From assembly GCA_947589435.1 (NCBI GenBank), contig CANQBI010000004.1, positions 1 through 55,091 on the forward strand: a DNA stretch of 55,091 nucleotides, written 5' to 3'. Position numbers and translations under genes: made by a program. Positions within the stretch are counted from its first letter, which is position 1; each line of letters begins with the position of its first letter. Shown in pieces: positions 1,058 through 55,091 of this stretch. Under the pieces are notes generated by a model that saw only the letters and a list, made by a program, of their open reading frames with translations, was not told the origin of the DNA and made no database searches. Origin of the DNA: an uncultured Bacilli bacterium. Lineage in GTDB: Bacteria; Bacillota_I; Bacilli_A; RF39; UBA660.

Positions 1058-1068
1058 GAGTGGAAATA

Positions 1069-2238
1069 ATGAAAAAGAAAATAATATTAAAATTAATAGT
1101 GGTATTAGTAACAATAGGAATAATATATGAAGGTTATGGAATGATAAAAGAATTTACTGTATCAAGTAGAAATTTAGAAGAAATAAATACTAAAGACTTA
1201 TCAAGCAATGATAAATCAATAGCTATAGTTTTACAAAATGAAGATGATAGTTGGGAAGAAGCAACTGATAGAAGCAAATGGCCGAGTAAAGAAGATTATG
1301 GCTATATGGGAGCAGAATGTACTGACAGTGATGGAGCAAAGATAGATGTATCCACTATTTTAAAATTTGATTTAATGACCTATCATGCCACAATAGATAC
1401 TAAAAATAGTATTTATTGTACATTATATTTTGCAAAAGGAGAACCAGCGTTACAAAAATTACAAGAAACAGGAGGAGAAGTATTTGCTGGAGGTGGAGAC
1501 CACACAACAGCAGTAGATGGGATGTATAGATATAAAGGGACAACAACAGCCGTAAATAATAATTATATATGCTTTGGAACAAGTAATAAAGATGAATGTC
1601 TTGCAAATCCAGATACCTATATGTTTAGAATAATAGGAATAACAAGTGCAGATGATAATACAGTAGGATTAAAAAAAGGTCAATTAAAGATAATCAAAGC
1701 TACCCCATCAAATACAAGTCAAAAATGGGGAAATAGAGAAGATGATAGTTCACCATGGGACTCATCACAAGCAAAAAACCACGTAACATCATGGTATAAT
1801 ACAAACATCAGTGGCAAACAACCAAACGGAACATATTGGGATAGTATAGTAACAAGTCAAAAATGGTATAATGCAGACCAAACAAGTACACCAGGAACAG
1901 TAGAACCAAAAACAAGTCAAAGTGCAGCAAGTAAAGTTGCTTTAATGTATGGAACAGACTTTACAAATGCTAGTACTGGAACAAGTAGTTGGTTGTTTAT
2001 AAAAAACGGAATGACCGGTAGTCCTAGTTCAAATGAATGGACCATGACTAGGTATGGCCTCAACGACAGACGTTATTGGGCGTGGTATGTGCTTACAGAC
2101 GGCCGCTTGACCTACTGGTATGTGGACGGTACGTATGCGGTTCGCCCAGTCTTGTATCTTCAATCTGCAATAAATTTAACAGGTACAGGAAAATCAGATG
2201 ACCCATTTAGAATAAGAAGTATGAATAATGTCCAATAA
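1069..2238 (+). CDS. Cassette 1 gene B1: membrane-anchored protein with a C-terminal diversified (C-type-lectin-like) segment
   Basis: About 389 aa from the ATG at 1069, chosen over a GTG at 1060 because TAGGAG lies 8 nt upstream of the ATG. An N-terminal hydrophobic helix (about residues 5-22) anchors it. The ectodomain carries motifs shared with B2 and B3: IYCTLYFAKG, a VDG-YR-KGT block, YRIIG, and a C-terminal EWTMTR...AW...G...VRPV-YL block. The segment at 2049-2146 is about 55% G+C, far above its flanks, and aligns gaplessly with the template-like repeat at 53215-53312, with many differences at template adenines. This marks B1 as a likely diversity-generating retroelement target, with the variable residues displayed on a lectin-like fold. 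Ligand unknown. The lectin-like assignment rests on the WTM...G.RPV-YL pattern known from such targets, not on a structure. Confidence 0.75.
   Translation: MKKKIILKLIVVLVTIGIIYEGYGMIKEFTVSSRNLEEINTKDLSSNDKSIAIVLQNEDDSWEEATDRSKWPSKEDYGYMGAECTDSDGAKIDVSTILKFDLMTYHATIDTKNSIYCTLYFAKGEPALQKLQETGGEVFAGGGDHTTAVDGMYRYKGTTTAVNNNYICFGTSNKDECLANPDTYMFRIIGITSADDNTVGLKKGQLKIIKATPSNTSQKWGNREDDSSPWDSSQAKNHVTSWYNTNISGKQPNGTYWDSIVTSQKWYNADQTSTPGTVEPKTSQSAASKVALMYGTDFTNASTGTSSWLFIKNGMTGSPSSNEWTMTRYGLNDRRYWAWYVLTDGRLTYWYVDGTYAVRPVLYLQSAINLTGTGKSDDPFRIRSMNNVQ
2049..2146 (+). repeat. Variable repeat VR1 in gene B1
   Basis: 98 nt aligned without gaps to 53215-53312. By hand I count about 70 identities. Roughly half of the mismatches fall at adenines of the template, and in the 3' half 8 of 10 do. 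The eight template AAC/AAT codons become Arg, Trp, Arg, Thr, Tyr, Tyr, Asp and Gly codons. The last 17 nt (2130-2146) are identical and could act as the homing-initiation end. Some non-adenine differences remain, so this template may not be the one that last rewrote VR1. Confidence 0.75.
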
Positions 2239-2851: not shown

Positions 2852-2940
2852 TTTTACAACAAATATGTTCATTTTTTAAAGAAATTTCGCGAAAAAAAAG
2901 GAAATCCGAGATTTTTTTACAATAATATAAGTGAAGGGAG
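2852..2940 (+). repeat. 89-bp promoter-region repeat, copy 1 (upstream of bacteriocin exporter)
   Basis: This stretch, from ACAACAAATATG through TTTCGCGAAA and AAATCCGAGATTT to a TACAATAATATAAGTGAAGGGAG leader, recurs almost unchanged at 52327-52415. It ends at the ribosome binding site of the C39 exporter gene, so it probably carries that gene's promoter, plus a small hairpin with a T-run (AAATC/GATTT). The second copy lies ahead of a toxin-like gene. Confidence 0.75.
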
Positions 2941-22806: not shown

Positions 22807-22829
22807 GTATAATTATTATGAGGTTAGAT

Positions 22830-24908
22830 ATGGAATATTTAGACAGTTTAAATAAAGAACAAAAAGAAGCAGTTATGCATATTGATGGCCCATGTCTAGT
22901 AGTAGCGGGGGCTGGTTCAGGTAAGACTAAAGTTCTTACAACTAGAATTGCTTATCTTATTGATAAAGGTATTTATAGTAGTCATATTTTAGCGATTACT
23001 TTTACAAATAAAGCTGCGAAGGAAATGAAAGAAAGAGTTGGAAGGCTTACTTCAAATAGTTATGCTTTTGTAGGAACCTTCCATTCTTTTGGGTTAAGAA
23101 TAATTAAAGAAAATTATGAAGTAATGGGCTTAAAGAAAAATTTTACTATCATCGATTCGGATGATGTTTTAACCATTATTAAAAAAGTTATGAAAGAAAA
23201 AGGGATGGATGTAAGGGAAATATCGCCATCTTATGTAAGAAATAGAATTAGCTTTATTAAAAATGAAATGTTAAGTGTAAGTGATATTGCTAAATATTTT
23301 TTAAGTGATATTGAAAAGAAGGCTGCCGAAGTTTATTTTGAATATGAAAAAACTTTAAGAAAAAATAATGTTATTGATTTTGATGATTTATTAAAATTAC
23401 CGGTAGAATTATTTGAAAGTCACGAAGATATTTTAGATTTATATCAAGAAAAATATCAATATATTTTGGTAGATGAATATCAAGATACCAATGAAGTGCA
23501 ATATAAAATGATTAAACTTTTAGCCAGTAAATATCGGAATATCTTTGTTGTTGGAGATCAAAATCAAGCTATTTATGGTTTTAGACAAGCGAATTATAAA
23601 AATATTTTAAATTTTGAAAAAGATTATCCGGATGCGGAAGTTTATGTTTTAAATCAAAATTATCGGAGTACAACCACCATTTTAAATGCGGCCAATTCGG
23701 TTATTAAAAATAATGTGGAAAGAAAAGAAGTTAATTTATTTAGTGAACTAGGGGAAGGTGTCAAGGTTAAATATTTAAAATGCAAAACAGGTTTAGATGA
23801 AGCAAATTTAATTATTAAAGAAATTGAAAATTTACTTTCTATAGGTTATCAAAAGAAAGATATTGCGATTTTTTATAGAACTAATGCCCAATCCCGGATT
23901 TATGAAGAAGCCTTAATTAAGAATGGTTTACCTTATAAAGTAGTAGGTAGTTTTTACTTCTATAAAAGAAAAGAAATTAAAGATTTAATATGTTATTTAA
24001 AATTAATTGCGAATACCGATGACGATGTTTCTCTTTTAAGAGTTATTAATGAACCAAAAAGAGGCATTGGGGCTAAATCAATTGAAGGTTTAACAGGAAA
24101 AGCGAGAAGAGAAGGCACTTCTATTTTTGAGACCATTGATGGTGGTAAAGAACAAGATTTTAAAAATATGATTTTAGATATCCAAAAGGAAAGTGAGAAT
24201 TTATCTTTAACGGAATTAATTGATTTAGTGTTAGAAAAAAGTAAAATGAAAGAAGAGTTAGAGAAAGTTCATACTTTAGAAGCTGACATTAGACTGGAAA
24301 ACTTAATGGAATTTAGAAGTATAACGGAAAATTATCAAAATGTTACTGGTAGTGTTAATTTACAAGACTTTTTAGAGGAAGTAAGTTTAATTGCGGACAT
24401 TACCGAACATAAAGAAGAAAATGATGAAATAACTTTAATGACTTTTCATTCCGCTAAAGGGTTAGAGTTTAAAGTGGTCTTTATGGTAGGCATGGAAGAT
24501 GGTCTTATGCCTCATATGAATGCTTTTGATGAAAAAAATGGCATTGAAGAAGAAAGAAGACTTTGCTATGTGGGGATAACGAGAGCCAAAGAAAGATTAT
24601 ATTTAACTAATGCGAAGATGAGAATGCTTTATGGTAAAGAAATGTTTAATGTTCCATCACGCTTTATTGCGGAAATTGATCCTAAATATTTAGAAGTAAG
24701 TGGTGAAGAAGAAAAAATAAATAAAGAAAGTTATTATACCGAAAATAGTGAAGAATGTGATTATAAAAGTGGAGATGTTGTTACGCATTTAACCTATGGC
24801 AGAGGGGTTGTTATATCCGTTGATGACCGGTTTGTCAGTGTGGCCTTTAGTAAACAATACGGTATTAGAAAATTCTTAAAAAACTATAAAGGACTAAAGA
24901 AAGGATAA
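22830..24908 (+). CDS. pcrA: UvrD/PcrA-type DNA helicase
   Basis: About 692 aa. Start at 22830 (after GAGGT); an ATG 12 nt earlier would lie almost at the transcription start. It is a superfamily 1A helicase: Walker A VAGAGSGKT, motif II VDEYQDTN, QAIYGFRQA, TFHSAKGLEFKVVF, and the PcrA hallmark GMEDGLMPHMNAF. A C-terminal Tudor-like domain (DVVTHLTYGRGVVISV) is typical for PcrA. It removes RecA and helps replication past transcription complexes. The next gene starts 4 nt after the stop. Confidence 0.96.
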   Translation: MEYLDSLNKEQKEAVMHIDGPCLVVAGAGSGKTKVLTTRIAYLIDKGIYSSHILAITFTNKAAKEMKERVGRLTSNSYAFVGTFHSFGLRIIKENYEVMGLKKNFTIIDSDDVLTIIKKVMKEKGMDVREISPSYVRNRISFIKNEMLSVSDIAKYFLSDIEKKAAEVYFEYEKTLRKNNVIDFDDLLKLPVELFESHEDILDLYQEKYQYILVDEYQDTNEVQYKMIKLLASKYRNIFVVGDQNQAIYGFRQANYKNILNFEKDYPDAEVYVLNQNYRSTTTILNAANSVIKNNVERKEVNLFSELGEGVKVKYLKCKTGLDEANLIIKEIENLLSIGYQKKDIAIFYRTNAQSRIYEEALIKNGLPYKVVGSFYFYKRKEIKDLICYLKLIANTDDDVSLLRVINEPKRGIGAKSIEGLTGKARREGTSIFETIDGGKEQDFKNMILDIQKESENLSLTELIDLVLEKSKMKEELEKVHTLEADIRLENLMEFRSITENYQNVTGSVNLQDFLEEVSLIADITEHKEENDEITLMTFHSAKGLEFKVVFMVGMEDGLMPHMNAFDEKNGIEEERRLCYVGITRAKERLYLTNAKMRMLYGKEMFNVPSRFIAEIDPKYLEVSGEEEKINKESYYTENSEECDYKSGDVVTHLTYGRGVVISVDDRFVSVAFSKQYGIRKFLKNYKGLKKG

Positions 24909-29051: not shown

Positions 29052-30200
29052 ATGAAAAAGAAAATAATGTTAAAAGGTATTGTTATAATATTAATAGTGG
29101 TAGAAGTTATATCATTATACTTATTGTATAACACAGGCAATAAAAATGTATTAGATGAGGTGGTAGCAACATCATTAAAAAATAAGAAACAATCCATAGC
29201 GATAATGGTCCAACAGGATGATAACACATGGAGGGCTGCTGAAAATAGAAATGCTTGGCCAAGTTCGGCAACTCATGGTTTTGTTGGTTCTAAATGTTAT
29301 GATGGAAATGGAGCATTAGTAGAAAGTTTGGATGTACTTAAATTTGATTTAAATACATATACAGCCATAATAAACACAACAAACAGTGTTTATTGTACAT
29401 TATACTTCGCTAAAGGAAAAAATGCTTTAGAACTATTGCAAGAAAAAGGTAAAACAACTTTTGCTAGTGGAAACTTAATCGCAGTAGATGGACTATACCG
29501 TTTTAAAGGAACATATAGTCAAGTATTAAATAATTACATATGTTTTGGAACAACAGTAGAAAGTACATGTACAGGTACTCCAGCAACATATATGTATAGA
29601 ATAATAGGAATATCAAGTGAAGCAGATAATACAATAGGATTATATTCAAGTCAATTAAAAATAATAAAAGCGGTACCATCACTAACAAACCAAGAGTGGG
29701 GTGGCTTCATGTATAACTATCCTGTATGGGAAGAATCGAAATTAAAAGAATATTTAAACACAACATTTCTAAATACGATAAAAAATGGAACTGATGGAAC
29801 ATACTGGAATGGCATAATAAGTCAACATGGATGGTATGTAACAGTTCAAGAAAGTCTGCCAGGAACAGTAGAACCAAAAGATACAACACTTGCAGGAGAC
29901 TCAAATAATATAATAGGGTTAATGTATGCAACAGATTTTAATAATGCTGGAAATTGGTTATTATTAAGTAATGGTTGGACAAATAATTCTCCAGATGGAG
30001 AGTGGACCATGAGTAAATTCGATGATGATGTGGGTTCTGGTGCTTGGTACATTGATCAAAGTGGTTATGTGACGAACGCATATATTGAACGTGAATTATC
30101 AGTTCGGCCTGTCTTCTATCTTAATACAGGAACTAATTTAACAGGAGAAGGAACCAAAGACCATCCATTTATAATATCAGGGGTAATGCCTCAAGATTAA
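29052..30200 (+). CDS. Cassette 3 gene B3: membrane-anchored protein with diversified C-terminus
   Basis: 382 aa; AAGGGA upstream. The N-terminal anchor spans about residues 5-25. The shared ectodomain blocks are SVYCTLYFAKG, VDGLYRFKGT, YICFGT, YMYRIIGI, LKIIKAVPS and IGLMYATDF. The C-terminal block starts at GEWTMSK and ends in LSVRPVFYL; between these, residues differ from B1 and B2 at most positions that correspond to template AAC/AAT codons. VR3 is one codon shorter than the template near its 5' end. Likely the same lectin-like display role. Confidence 0.78.
   Translation: MKKKIMLKGIVIILIVVEVISLYLLYNTGNKNVLDEVVATSLKNKKQSIAIMVQQDDNTWRAAENRNAWPSSATHGFVGSKCYDGNGALVESLDVLKFDLNTYTAIINTTNSVYCTLYFAKGKNALELLQEKGKTTFASGNLIAVDGLYRFKGTYSQVLNNYICFGTTVESTCTGTPATYMYRIIGISSEADNTIGLYSSQLKIIKAVPSLTNQEWGGFMYNYPVWEESKLKEYLNTTFLNTIKNGTDGTYWNGIISQHGWYVTVQESLPGTVEPKDTTLAGDSNNIIGLMYATDFNNAGNWLLLSNGWTNNSPDGEWTMSKFDDDVGSGAWYIDQSGYVTNAYIERELSVRPVFYLNTGTNLTGEGTKDHPFIISGVMPQD
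30011..30108 (+). repeat. Variable repeat VR3 in gene B3
   Basis: It corresponds by position to VR1 and the template. Conserved residues are A-W, G, V/L and V-R; the rest have changed. DNA identity to the template is lower than for VR1, with many non-adenine changes, so homology is supported mainly at protein level. Confidence 0.5.
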
Positions 30201-52102: not shown

Positions 52103-52285
52103 TTGAAAAATGATAAGAAAAAAATTACTAAATTTCCTAAAGGATTTTTTACTAGTATCAAGCCTTGTAGAATCAATCATAGTAAAAACTCTGAAGAAGA
52201 CTTACCATTTGAATGGAGTGAAAATGTTTTAAATGGAAAAAGTAAAGTAAAATTAGTATCGGCAAAAAGAAAAACTAATAAGTAA
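52103..52285 (+). CDS. Small basic protein, possible antitoxin 1
   Basis: 60 aa from a TTG start after AGAGGG. Its FPKGFF, PFEWSENVLNGKSKVKLVSAKRKTNK pattern is shared with the 57-aa protein at 52955. The two flank a PemK/MazF-like gene, which suggests antitoxin roles, but this is inferred from position. A terminator hairpin (52297-52323) follows. Confidence 0.65.
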   Translation: MKNDKKKITKFPKGFFTSIKPCRINHSKNSEEDLPFEWSENVLNGKSKVKLVSAKRKTNK

Positions 52286-52326: not shown

Positions 52327-52415
52327 TTTTACAACAAATGTGTTCTTTTTTTTAAGAAATTTCGCGAAAAAAAAGGAAATCAGAGATTTTTTTACAATAA
52401 TATAAGTGAAGGGAG
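52327..52415 (+). repeat. 89-bp promoter-region repeat, copy 2
   Basis: Nearly identical to 2852-2940 upstream of the bacteriocin exporter, including TTTCGCGAAA, the T-run and the ATAATATAAGTGAAGGGAG end. After GGGAG the sequences diverge: here another 57 nt with its own AAAGGAGG precedes the toxin-like gene. Confidence 0.8.
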
Positions 52416-52471: not shown

Positions 52472-52888
52472 ATGTGTAAACTTGGAGATATAATAGTTAT
52501 AGATAAGTTTAAAAATGAAGATGGAGAAATCATTTCTAAACATTCCTTTGTTGTTGTTTCTGATAGCAAAGGATGTATTAGTGGAATTAAATATGATTTT
52601 GTAGCAAGCATACTTTGTAGTTTTCATAACAAAGAACATTTGAATAAAAAGTTAAGATATAAAGAAAACTTCTTAATTAAAGAAGATTTAATATCTGGAA
52701 AAAATTTAAACAATAAATCTGGTTATATTAAAGCAGATCAATTATATTATTTTGATAAAAAACAAATAAATTATAAAGTTATTGCCCATATGGAAGATGA
52801 ACTATTTGATGAATTAATACAATTAATAATAGATTTAAGTAAAAAAGACAAATTGAAAAATATTGAAACAAATTTAGAAAAAGCCTAA
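52472..52888 (+). CDS. PemK/MazF-like toxin candidate
   Basis: 138 aa. GDIIVIDKFKNEDGEIISKHSFVVVSD resembles the first strands of PemK/MazF proteins, followed by a GIKYDFVAS region and YIKADQLYYF. A C-terminal helix of basic and acidic residues ends the protein. AAAGGAGG precedes the start. It is flanked by two paralogous small basic proteins. Endoribonuclease activity is inferred only. Confidence 0.65.
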   Translation: MCKLGDIIVIDKFKNEDGEIISKHSFVVVSDSKGCISGIKYDFVASILCSFHNKEHLNKKLRYKENFLIKEDLISGKNLNNKSGYIKADQLYYFDKKQINYKVIAHMEDELFDELIQLIIDLSKKDKLKNIETNLEKA

Positions 52889-52954: not shown

Positions 52955-53128
52955 ATGGTCAAAAAAAATCGTCCTAAATTTCCTAAAGGCTTTTTTTCTC
53001 AACCAAGACCCACTATTAGTTTAAAAGAAGCTTTAAAAGATGTTACTCCCTTCGAATGGAGTGAGGATGCTTTAAATGGAAAAAGTAAAGTTAAAATAGT
53101 ATCGGCAAAAAGAAAGACTAATAAATAA
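52955..53128 (+). CDS. Small basic protein, possible antitoxin 2
   Basis: 57 aa: a basic N-terminus, FPKGFFSQPRP, and the ending VTPFEWSEDALNGKSKVKIVSAKRKTNK, nearly identical at the end to the 60-aa protein at 52103. AGAGGTGG precedes the ATG. A TATAAT-like box lies near 52928. A duplication of this antitoxin-like gene around the toxin candidate is the simplest reading. Confidence 0.65.
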   Translation: MVKKNRPKFPKGFFSQPRPTISLKEALKDVTPFEWSEDALNGKSKVKIVSAKRKTNK

Positions 53129-53182: not shown

Positions 53183-53453
53183 TATAATATAAATAGGTAA
53201 TCTTGATATAGAGTTAGGTATGGCCGAGATGGCAGCAATTACAATGCGTGGGTTGTGACTACGGACGGCAACTTGAACAACCCGAATGTGAACAATACGT
53301 ATGCGGTTCGCCAGACTTCTATAACTTGAATGATTATATGATTAAGGTTATATACTAGGGAAGATAGAAGACAAAGATTATCTAGGACTTTATCCAAAAC
53401 AAAAACGAAGATGGTTTATTTTACGAAATAACCTGTATACTTCGTTATTTTTT
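53183..53453 (+). ncRNA. Putative template RNA of a diversity-generating retroelement
   Basis: A TATAAT (53183-53188) opens a non-coding segment that contains the template-like repeat (53215-53312) and ends at a strong terminator: AACGAAG...CTTCGTT with an inner GGTT-ATTTT/AAAT-AACC stem and seven Ts (53404-53453). The resulting RNA would be about 260 nt. The -35 is weak. In known retroelements the reverse transcriptase lies next to the template; here neither it nor Avd is seen. The downstream half has another small hairpin (AGATA ... TATCT). Confidence 0.55.
53215..53312 (+). repeat. Template repeat (TR) matching VR1
   Basis: 98 nt. Read in the B1 frame it encodes AWVVTTDGNLNNPNVNN-TYAVR, where the residues that vary in B1-B3 are AAC or AAT codons. 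Such codons can mutate at both adenines without ever giving a stop, the design feature of these templates. The last 17 nt equal the end of VR1. Homology to VR1 continues weakly downstream, with a one-base indel that would break the frame, so the copy is not itself coding. An alternative is an old, decayed variable repeat. Confidence 0.7.
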
Positions 53454-53563
53454 TGCTTCTTTTTCTTTAAAGTAATCATTTTAAATAATAGTAATATAAT
53501 ATAGAGAAATTATATCTTTTTTGTAAATAAGCGATATTTGTCAAAAATTAGTAAAAATATATC

Positions 53564-53594
53564 TTGACAAATAGAATACGGGGGGGGGTATAAT
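53564..53594 (+). promoter_or_regulatory. Adhesin promoter with a poly-G spacer (phase-variable)
   Basis: TTGACA (53564-53569) and TATAAT (53589-53594) are perfect consensus boxes, but the spacer is 19 bp and its last nine bases are all G (53580-53588). Loss of two Gs would restore the optimal 17 bp; change by one would alter strength. This is a classical arrangement for slipped-strand control of transcription. It drives the adhesin gene starting at 53623. Confidence 0.85.
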
Positions 53595-53622: not shown

Positions 53623-55091
53623 ATGAAAAATTTAAAAATGTTTGCAATTGCTGTTATGGCATTCGCTGTAATGGCTACTGGTGTTCGTGCTGCTGTTACA
53701 TGTACAAATGCAAGTTATTCGAACACAGTTGATGGTGAGCTTAAGTGTTATACTAGTTTTTCTACAGCTTTAACTGAAGCGAAAATTGGTGACACAATAA
53801 AACTAGAAGGTGATTCTGAAGGTGTTGTTACAGAAACTACAGCCATAGTAATCAATAAAAATGTTAATATTGATTTAAATGGTAAAACTCTTAAATTAGA
53901 TGGTGCTATTGGAATTACAGTAAATTCTGGTTATAAGCTTACTTTAAAAGGAACAGGAAAAGTTGAAAATACAACTTCTGCTAATACATCTTTAATTACT
54001 GTTCAAGCTGGAGCTACATTAAAAGTAGATGATTCAGTTAATCTAGTTAATAATGAGGATAATGCAGGAAATACTGCTATTGATGCTTCTGCTGTAAGAG
54101 TTGAAAGTAATAATACAGCTAATAAAACTACTGTAGTATTTGGAAAGGACGTTGTTGTTACTTCAAAATTACATGGTTTAGTTGTTGGTGGCGGAAGTAC
54201 TCTAGCAACTGCTAAAAATATTGACATCACTATGAGAGGTACTTGGACTGCAGATGTTTATGTAGTAAAAGTTAATGGATATATTACATATCAAAGTAGT
54301 AATCCTGTAAAAATTGCTATACCTGAAGGTACTTATACTTCAAATGGAGCAAGCGCATTATATGCGTCAGGATATGCTGAATGGGATATCGATAATCCTA
54401 CTGTAAAGGGTTCTCAAGCAGTTACAGTTAGAAGTGGTAAAGTAGATATTAGTGGTGGTACTTTTGAAGCTACTACTTCAACAAATGGTGCTGGTACTCA
54501 TGATGGTTCATCAAATCATGCTATTGCTATCTTAGGAAACGAAGCTGTTGCTGGAAATAGTTCTTATAATGATCCAAAATATATTGATGTAAAAATTTCA
54601 GGAGGTGCATTCACTGCTAAAACTGATGATTCATATGCAATATATATTGGAGAAATAAATGATGATACTAAATTAGCTATTAGTAATGGTACATTTACAA
54701 GTGGTAAGGATTCTGTTGAAGAAACACAATTACCTGCTATGTTTATCAATACAAATAGTCTTCAAACAATGCTTGAAAAACATGATGATATAATTACTGG
54801 CGGAACATTTACTGGTGGTTTAGTTGATGAAATTGAATATGATGGTAAAAAATATGAACCTGCTGATGTTCAAGCTAAATTAGTTAAAGGTGAAGTTAAT
54901 ACTGAAGGTGGAAATACTACAGTTGGAACTCCTTCTGATGAAGGACAACAACCAGGAAGTACAGAACCAGGAACAACTGGTGATGGAAATCAAGGCTCTA
55001 CAGAAAACGTTAAAAACCCAGAAACTAATGATAATATCTTAGTATATGCTGGTCTAGGACTAGTAAGTCTTGCCTCTGTTGCTTTTACAGC
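53623..55091 (+). CDS. Secreted surface adhesin-like protein with NPETN-type sorting signal (3' end cut by window)
   Basis: At least 489 aa, running off the window. GAAAGAGG precedes the ATG. Signal peptide: residues about 1-24 (KNLKMFAIAVMAFAVMATGVRA). The body (about 25-400) is rich in short beta repeats such as VNIDLNGKTLKL, GTGKVENTT, VDISGGTFEATT, ISGGAFTAKT and ISNGTFTSG, as in right-handed beta-helix or pectate-lyase-like surface proteins. A Gly/Pro/Thr/Glu linker (about 420-460) leads to NPETNDNILVYAGLGLVSL, a sorting-like motif plus membrane helix. NPxTN is the sortase B-type pattern. Two cysteines lie near the N-terminus. It is transcribed from the poly-G promoter. Confidence 0.85.
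   Translation, partial: MKNLKMFAIAVMAFAVMATGVRAAVTCTNASYSNTVDGELKCYTSFSTALTEAKIGDTIKLEGDSEGVVTETTAIVINKNVNIDLNGKTLKLDGAIGITVNSGYKLTLKGTGKVENTTSANTSLITVQAGATLKVDDSVNLVNNEDNAGNTAIDASAVRVESNNTANKTTVVFGKDVVVTSKLHGLVVGGGSTLATAKNIDITMRGTWTADVYVVKVNGYITYQSSNPVKIAIPEGTYTSNGASALYASGYAEWDIDNPTVKGSQAVTVRSGKVDISGGTFEATTSTNGAGTHDGSSNHAIAILGNEAVAGNSSYNDPKYIDVKISGGAFTAKTDDSYAIYIGEINDDTKLAISNGTFTSGKDSVEETQLPAMFINTNSLQTMLEKHDDIITGGTFTGGLVDEIEYDGKKYEPADVQAKLVKGEVNTEGGNTTVGTPSDEGQQPGSTEPGTTGDGNQGSTENVKNPETNDNILVYAGLGLVSLASVAFT

What the first reader, a model, noticed from the sequence alone, without database searches (positions are those of the whole stretch)
53215..53312. Orphan DGR-type template repeat 23-51 kb from its putative targets
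The 98-nt repeat aligns gaplessly with VR1 (2049-2146). By hand about 27 mismatches occur, roughly half at template adenines, and 8 of 10 in the 3' half. Variable codons in the template are all AAC/AAT, and the last 17 nt are identical. This matches diversity-generating retroelements, but the template is normally within a few kb of the target and beside a reverse transcriptase. Here no reverse transcriptase is visible, so a trans system or an orphaned template is implied. The non-adenine changes are a real caveat.
Basis: partly seen in the sequence, partly recalled or inferred. Interest (0 to 1): 0.93.

Follow-up and report, generated by a model that had tools for sequence, protein, structure and literature searches.

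The report
Scattered template genes rewrite surface lectins
An uncultured gut bacterium carries at least thirteen related template cassettes scattered around its genome and one matching reverse transcriptase gene; together they are predicted to keep rewriting about thirty segments of likely surface proteins, whose sequences bear the adenine-directed changes and mix-and-match patches that such a system would leave.

Summary
The segment is not a lone orphan but one of 13 cassettes on 8 contigs of this 1.44-Mb genome. Each has a -10-like box (TATAAT, GATAAT in three), an adenine-rich template, a conserved covarying 3' RNA domain and a terminator-like hairpin. A DGR-like reverse transcriptase beside an Avd-like gene lies on contig C13. 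Thirty variable repeats differ from their best template mainly at adenines (56% of A versus 18-24% of C, G, T), while third bases of AAC/AAT codons are largely spared. A relative with one template shows 15 of 15 mismatches at adenine. One repeat is two template halves, the second uniquely from this cassette, 13 of 13 differences at adenine. Best templates for the two halves agree in 2 of 28 repeats, as under free reassortment. A known kind (DGR) in a multi-template, reassorting form not found in print here. No activity was measured.

The parts
53183..53188 (+). TATAAT, predicted -10 promoter element of the template RNA gene
   Evidence: Exact TATAAT within 2 nt of the same distance before the conserved RNA start in 42 of 46 rows collected by motif; of the other 4, one is an empty row at a locus edge and 3 read GATAAT. 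That motif missed the C6a cassette, which also reads GATAAT; so 10 of the 13 cassettes here have TATAAT. The generic -35/-10 scan did not report it.
53196..53214 (+). conserved 5' end of the template RNA; GGTAATCTT 53196-53204 predicted to pair with AAGATTATC 53374-53382
   Evidence: Alignment of 13 cassettes and consensus fold, columns 2-10 with 202-210; these pairs hardly vary, so they are not supported by covariation.
53215..53312 (+). template repeat (the finding), AAC/AAT-rich, ends in the GCGGTTCGCC shared by all 13 templates and many targets
   Evidence: best source of the last 58 readable nt of the C26 variable repeat, 9 of 9 differences at A and 0 of 41 non-A positions changed.
53313..53398 (+). 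conserved structured 3' RNA domain of the cassette
   Evidence: RNA model R1 match 53302-53454; covariation in 78 distinct rows, 94.4% of cells paired against 43-51% for slid partners (alignment fitted to the model).
53404..53454 (+). terminator-like hairpin (AACGAAG/CTTCGTT, 53404-53410 with 53440-53446, inner stem between) followed by T run 53448-53454
   Evidence: Helices 6 and 7, 98.9% and 92.9% of cells paired with double changes at all 16 pairs; compensatory changes also within this genome. Not listed by the simple terminator scan.
1060..2238 (+). target gene: 392-aa likely membrane-anchored surface protein with C-terminal variable repeat
   Evidence: ORF; predicted N-terminal helix 5-31 (low confidence) and C-terminal domain with C-type-lectin-like matches; one of about 29 such genes here.
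2049..2146 (+). variable repeat VR1
   Evidence: Best single template T_C6d, A 16 of 31 and non-A 6 of 65 changed; HMM path T_C18 then T_C13b, A 14 of 29, non-A 3 of 68; against this cassette A 14 of 27, non-A 13 of 71.
29052..30200 (+). paralogue of the target family with a diverged VR-like end at about 30004-30110 (probably not a current target)
   Evidence: Translation ends EWTMSKFDDD...SVRPVFYL; not among sites within 1 mismatch of TGCGGTTCGCC.

Best explanation
The repeat at 53215-53312 is one of 13 related template cassettes dispersed over 8 contigs of this genome, which are predicted to be transcribed as free-standing RNAs and, with the one DGR-like reverse transcriptase encoded on another contig, would act in trans to rewrite about 30 variable repeats in likely surface proteins. 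Shown by sequence: the 13 cassettes, the RT with an Avd-like neighbour, the 30 variable repeats in about 29 genes, adenine-directed differences, conserved RNA structure, variable repeats that fit mosaics of templates, and orthologous templates with swapped halves between sister species. Inferred: the RT copies each template RNA with errors at adenines, and the cDNA replaces the target segment between the shared AGGTATGGC and GCGGTTCGCC ends. Mosaicism would come from recombination of template cassettes around the shared GCGTGG block (seen between species) and possibly also from template switching or partial replacement during homing (not resolved). The template library looks like an expansion of an ordinary one-template element: one relative in the genus has that layout, and outside the genus one copy per genome is the usual state, with some clusters.
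For: 13 cassettes over 218-226 of 226 query nt, also found by the RNA model (13). RT: RVT_1 E 3.6e-18, nearest solved chain 8ub7 at E 3.6e-22 against 3.3e-9 for the next; Avd-like neighbour NF033474 E 2.2e-8. 30 variable repeats: template A changed 508 of 900, C 126/525, G 149/802, T 118/640, Fisher 3e-82, 23 of 30 individually p<0.01; AAC/AAT codons changed 0.73, 0.55, 0.22 at positions 1, 2, 3. Same pattern with own templates in G031 (A 180/333, others 0.13-0.16) and G026 (A 172/322, others 0.09-0.12). Relative G008, with one template and the same tmcAL/miaA-like neighbours: 15 of 15 mismatches at A, 0 of 70 other positions. This template's imprint on C26: 0 of 41 non-A mismatches, the only one of 13 templates with none. 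Mosaic over single template: 2 x delta lnL 493 on 23 of 30 repeats, none of 40 simulations gained. Halves share a best template in 2 of 28; simulated means 25.0 and 26.4 for one template, 2.0 for free reassortment. Templates of sister species whose halves match different templates here: 8 of 14, clear-cut in 3.
Against: No activity, transcript or within-strain variation was measured. Non-A mismatches remain: 8-13% under the mosaic fit on 23 repeats, 18-24% with one template on 30. 7 of 30 repeats show no adenine bias at p<0.01. The Avd match is under both curated cut-offs. The genome is a 62-contig draft (93% complete), so templates may be missing and a mis-binned contig is possible. Cleaner 3' halves, expected of 3'-initiated partial replacement, were not significant (18 against 10, p 0.16). 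In 5 of the 8 swapped-half templates the best matches are loose.
Confidence: 0.9

Rival explanations
1. The cassettes are mostly relics: one or two templates beside the RT (C13) are active, the other 11 are dead duplicates, and mosaic targets are old products.
For: Only 2 of 13 templates are near the RT. 7 of 30 repeats lack a significant adenine signature. G037 has 10 cassettes and no detectable RT.
Against: Promoter-like element, structure and terminator-like hairpin are kept in the dispersed copies. Template cores are 81-100% identical (gaps aside) between species in 10 pairs that I chose, whereas 4 chosen target pairs are 62-77% in the repeat. Targets carry imprints of many templates. In G037 the tmcAL-like neighbour of the RT was not found either (no positive control), so its core locus may just be unassembled.
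Confidence: 0.12
2. Mosaicism is made mainly at the targets, by gene conversion among about 30 paralogous variable repeats or by RT template switching, rather than by recombination of templates.
For: Halves of targets assort as freely as simulated independent halves.
Against: Swapped halves are seen between template loci of different species (8 of 14, 3 of them clear-cut), so template recombination exists; it may suffice. Both can operate.
Confidence: 0.35
3. No retroelement: a family of surface proteins under diversifying selection, with non-coding fragments of one paralogue mistaken for templates.
For: Targets are variable paralogous proteins; some differences are not at adenines.
Against: Third positions of AAC/AAT template codons are largely spared (0.22 against 0.73 and 0.55), G008 is 15 of 15 at A, cassettes carry a conserved covarying RNA, and an RT with an Avd-like neighbour exists.
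Confidence: 0.02
4. Assembly or binning artefact that pooled cassettes of several strains or species.
For: Draft metagenome assembly, 62 contigs.
Against: Cassettes sit inside contigs of up to 55 kb; in 10 chosen pairs with G031 or G026 the sequence upstream of the cassette aligns locally at 70-97% over 33-299 nt, so at least several loci are shared between species; 12, 10, 7, 6 and 6 copies recur in other genomes of the genus.
Confidence: 0.03

Closest known systems
Diversity-generating retroelement (DGR), Bordetella phage BPP-1 type
   Same: RT plus Avd-like gene, adenine-directed differences between a non-coding template and the 3' end of target genes, C-type-lectin-like target domain, shared 3' end of template and target that then diverges (BPP-1 features recalled).
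   Different: 13 templates for one RT, each looking like its own RNA gene, all but two on other contigs than the RT; about 30 target repeats, many fitting mosaics of several templates.
DGRs with remote targets: Treponema denticola (PMC4891356, passages seen) and cyanobacteria (PMC7517822, passages seen)
   Same: Targets far from the RT (76 remote targets in the cyanobacterial set).
   Different: The passages describe remote targets, not extra templates in one genome; the T. denticola paper mentions multiple TRs in individual human metagenomes.
Thiohalocapsa PB-PSB1, nine DGR loci with inferred trans activity (PMC10907252, passages seen)
   Same: Components of one locus seem to act on targets elsewhere.
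   Different: Several complete or degenerate DGR loci in classes, not one RT with a library of template cassettes.
DGRs with several TRs in the MetaCSST survey (PMC6642488, passages seen)
   Same: More than one TR in some DGRs, e.g. [quoted passage not shown] SKA14; six TRs in Pseudomonas costantinii.
   Different: The six-TR case is described there as having few A-to-N changes; 216 of 271 multi-VR DGRs had one TR. No dispersed template genes or mosaic VRs in the passages seen.

Membership tests
Diversity-generating retroelement | DGR-type reverse transcriptase | tested here: met
   RVT_1 over cut-off; nearest solved chain 8ub7 (that this is the BPP-1 DGR RT is recalled, one search found no paper naming it); GLPIGNMTSQ and YMDD invariant in 10 relatives (that this motif marks DGR RTs is recalled); tblastn matches in 97 phage records, 5 of them named Bordetella. 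No tree was built.
Diversity-generating retroelement | Avd accessory protein | tested here: inconclusive
   Avd models match the 128-aa neighbour at E 2.2e-8 (NF033474) and 2.3e-6 (PF22296), both under curated cut-offs.
Diversity-generating retroelement | Template/variable repeat pairs differing at template adenines | tested here: met
   (bias, not exclusive); 15 of 15 in G008.
Diversity-generating retroelement | Variable repeat near the 3' end of a target ORF | tested here: met
   24-30 aa after the repeat in 27 of 28 G000 repeats examined (28 of 30; C22 and C26 not examined there); the other, C3:54143, is the first of two repeats in one gene.
Diversity-generating retroelement | C-type lectin (or Ig) fold of the variable domain | tested here: inconclusive
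Diversity-generating retroelement | 3' identity then divergence of template and target (IMH-like) | tested here: met
   Shared GCGGTTCGCC, then CTTCTATAACTTGA within a few nt in templates and CAGTCTTCTATCT or similar in targets. Its role was not tested.
Diversity-generating retroelement | Mutagenic retrohoming activity | not testable with these tools
   needs cells or purified protein
Retron | retron-type RT | tested here: not met
   The C13 RT scores 49 bits on retron_St85 (cut-off 235). The genome's other RT (C17) is the retron-like one, 215.5 bits, also under cut-off.
Group II intron | group II maturase-type RT | tested here: not met
   94.6 bits against a cut-off of 300 on TIGR04416.

The most novel reading that the evidence does not exclude
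A bacterial combinatorial repertoire: one reverse transcriptase serves a recombining library of at least 13 template RNA genes whose 5' and 3' modules reassort at a fixed GCGTGG joint, adding V(D)J-like module choice to adenine mutagenesis, and writes the products into about 30 lectin-like surface receptors.
Probability: 0.55. Interest if true: 0.92.

Novelty: new variant of a known kind. Interest (0 to 1): 0.82.

Why it matters
Large DGR surveys search around the RT (the 2021 survey, PMC8144416, passages seen, says that it would not detect remote targets), so multi-template trans systems would be missed. If the reading is right, template, enzyme and target are separate genes, and diversity has two sources: adenine randomisation and choice or reassortment of templates. 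The cassette is a compact trans-acting template RNA of about 260 nt with a natural series from 1 to 13 copies in one genus, which makes the evolution and the engineering of DGR templates testable.

Tried and rejected
Single-template pairing of VR1 with this repeat: rejected, other templates fit better. Polarity test for truncated 3'-initiated homing: not significant. Phage origin: an exact 25-nt pattern from the 3' domain had no match in viral contigs, a distant DNA search of phages none; tblastn of the RT in phages gave 97 records, all under 60% identity. Known RNA family: none at gathering score over the cassette, one sub-threshold match, E 0.63. The generic promoter/terminator scan did not report the cassette signals. 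Foldseek gave no match at E<=0.001. RT loss in G037: undecided, tmcAL-like neighbour not found and no positive control.

First idea that multiple templates are confined to this genus: not upheld. In 290 family genomes (stricter filters, at most 10 candidates scored each) none outside the genus has more than 2 matches (9 of 11 have one), but among loci two with RTs 58-60% identical, L196 and L195, show 4 and 3 full-length matches, their genus unknown to me. One search was given 61 of the 80 loci and 12 others.

Literature: ten searches over an open-licence full-text library; none of the listings, and none of the passages seen in six papers, describes a dispersed template library for one RT. Subscription papers and most preprints are not held.

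Rows dropped or chosen: one search used 23 of 30 repeats (7 with p>0.01 left out); one search used 28 of 30 (C7_21468 diverged, C26_5 cut by a contig end); one search used 28 (two repeats were found later); one search used 14 pairs chosen by me on flank similarity; its identities leave out gaps, and one target pair (C9) is less alike downstream (0.69) than in the repeat (0.77); one search used 9 of 12 and 5 of 7 templates and 11 and 10 repeats, those near the exact 10-mer. On second reading I lowered the section on the most novel reading from 0.60 to 0.55 because only 3 of the 8 swapped-half templates are clear-cut.

Full report
Observation. The 98-nt repeat and its gapless match to 2049-2146 are exactly as described: 27 mismatches, 14 at template adenines, 8 of 10 in the 3' half, 17 identical 3' nt. 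The next best ungapped match in the window has 47 identities against 71.

The thing is larger and not alone. With 53195-53420 as query, the genome (1.44 Mb, 62 contigs; the window is the whole of contig C4) gave 13 matches over nearly the whole query, 79-100% identical, on contigs C4, C6 (4), C7 (2), C11, C13 (2), C18, C28 and C45, and many shorter matches, mostly coding variable repeats. Aligned, the cassettes share TATAAT (GATAAT in C6a, C6c and C6d), GGTAATCTTGA, a template of 85-109 nt from AGGTATGGC to GCGGTTCGCC, a 3' domain and a hairpin, in most followed by a T run; flanks are mostly unlike, apart from some duplicated stretches. The consensus fold has 62 pairs, 9 with compensatory changes among the 13. 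In 78 distinct rows, mostly from relatives, 94.4% of cells are paired against 43-51% with slid partners, and 38 of 40 pairs show double changes (alignment fitted to the model). No Rfam family matches at its threshold.

Enzyme. RVT_1 finds two RTs. The C17 one is retron-like. The C13 one (374 aa) follows a 103-aa ORF and a 128-aa Avd-like ORF and precedes a 95-aa ORF; two template cassettes lie upstream of this run of genes, the second beyond other ORFs. Its nearest solved chain is 8ub7, which I recall as the BPP-1 DGR RT. In the relative G008 the order is target, template, small ORF, Avd-like ORF (by likeness to the one here), RT, 95-aa ORF, tmcAL-like, miaA-like, a one-template DGR, and all 15 template/target mismatches are at adenines, none at 70 other positions. 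G000 has the same tmcAL/miaA-like neighbours (those two names are recalled, from the look of the proteins).

Adenine test. Choosing for each repeat the template with fewest differences, without regard to base, template A is changed in 508 of 900 positions, C 126 of 525, G 149 of 802, T 118 of 640. In AAC/AAT template codons positions 1, 2, 3 are changed in 0.73, 0.55 and 0.22; A-free codons change at 0.12-0.17. Selection on the protein alone would not be expected to spare third bases. 23 of 30 repeats are individually significant at 0.01; 7 are not. G031 and G026 repeat the pattern with their own templates.

Mosaicism. An HMM started without base bias learned high change at A and a switch rate of 0.06 per column (28 repeats); on 23 of 30 repeats switching gained 493 in 2 x lnL, with none of 40 single-template simulations gaining, and left 8-13% change at C, G, T. 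C26 is the clearest case: T_C13a then T_C4 (the window's own template), 13 of 13 differences at A, 0 of 65 non-A positions; T_C4 alone of 13 templates has no non-A mismatch in the 3' segment. So this template has most simply written a target on another contig, in trans. Best templates of the 5' and 3' parts agree in 2 of 28 repeats; simulation gives means of 25.0 and 26.4 for one template and 2.0 for free reassortment. Templates reassort too: for 8 of 14 templates of two sister species the two halves are nearest different G000 templates. Three are clear-cut (G026:C2, C8 and C85, with 5' halves 0-1 differences from one template and 3' halves nearest another); in the other five the matches are looser. 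G026:C2, whose flanks are nearest C45, has a 5' half equal to T_C28 and a 3' half nearest T_C45. Whether the mosaics arise only through template recombination or also during homing is open; a test for cleaner 3' halves was not significant.

Evolution. RNA-model matches in the 38 genomes of the genus: 18 have at least one; 13 here, then 12, 10, 7, 6, 6, and 4 to 1. G024 has 4 copies in a row about 300-340 nt apart and G032 four within 4 kb, both beside the RT, plausible intermediates. In 290 family genomes (stricter filters, at most 10 candidates scored each) 14 match, 3 of them of the genus; of the other 11, nine have one and two have two. Against a strict one-genus expansion, loci L196 and L195 (RT 58-60% identical, genus not known to me) show 4 and 3 full-length matches near their RT. 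Relatives are uncultured Bacilli MAGs, many with sample names beginning Lapin (rabbit), one goat. Orthologous templates are alike (81-100% in 10 chosen pairs, gaps aside); orthologous variable repeats less so (62-77% in 4 chosen pairs, with length changes), while sequence upstream of those repeats is 77-93% and downstream 69-96% identical.

Judgement. By the features tested this is a DGR; Avd and fold are inconclusive by threshold. What is unusual is the layout: one RT, a dispersed and recombining library of template cassettes, and about 30 target repeats. In print I found remote targets, inferred trans action and a few multi-TR cases, but no such library in ten searches of an open-licence library.

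Noticed in passing
window 53580-53588 and 304-312: Two 9-G homopolymers, read by eye: one lies in the 19-nt spacer between TTGACA (53564-53569) and TATAAT (53589-53594) before the gene at 53623; the other lies between an ATG at 232 and the ORF 449-1057. Both look like possible phase-variable switches.
   Followed up: no
window 52472-52888: PemK/MazF-like gene (PF02452, E 4.8e-4, under cut-off), flanked by two similar tiny ORFs (52103-52285 and 52955-53128, by eye) just upstream of the cassette.
   Followed up: no
window 2882-2906 and 52357-52381; similar stretches beside cassettes in L005, L006, L009, L012, L013: Dispersed AT-rich repeat around AAATTTCGCGAAAAAAAAGGAAATC: two exact copies in the window, none expected by chance, and near copies next to five template cassettes. 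It might mark how cassettes were dispersed.
   Followed up: partly
G037 (same genus): 10 template cassettes but no reverse transcriptase found: assembly gap, or a template library without its enzyme.
   Followed up: partly
L001 (G000:C17:1610-2185): The second RT of the genome is retron St85-like (215.5 bits, cut-off 235); possibly a retron.
   Followed up: no
L077 (G000:C3:53285 and 54143): One 595-aa ORF carries two variable repeats, the internal one diverged.
   Followed up: no
window 24522-24619: Rfam RF03531 (n00280) match, 69 bits, inside the ORF 22818-24908.
   Followed up: no
L195, L196: Clusters of 3 and 4 template cassettes near more distant RTs (58-60% identity), so small multi-template arrays may have arisen more than once.
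   Followed up: no
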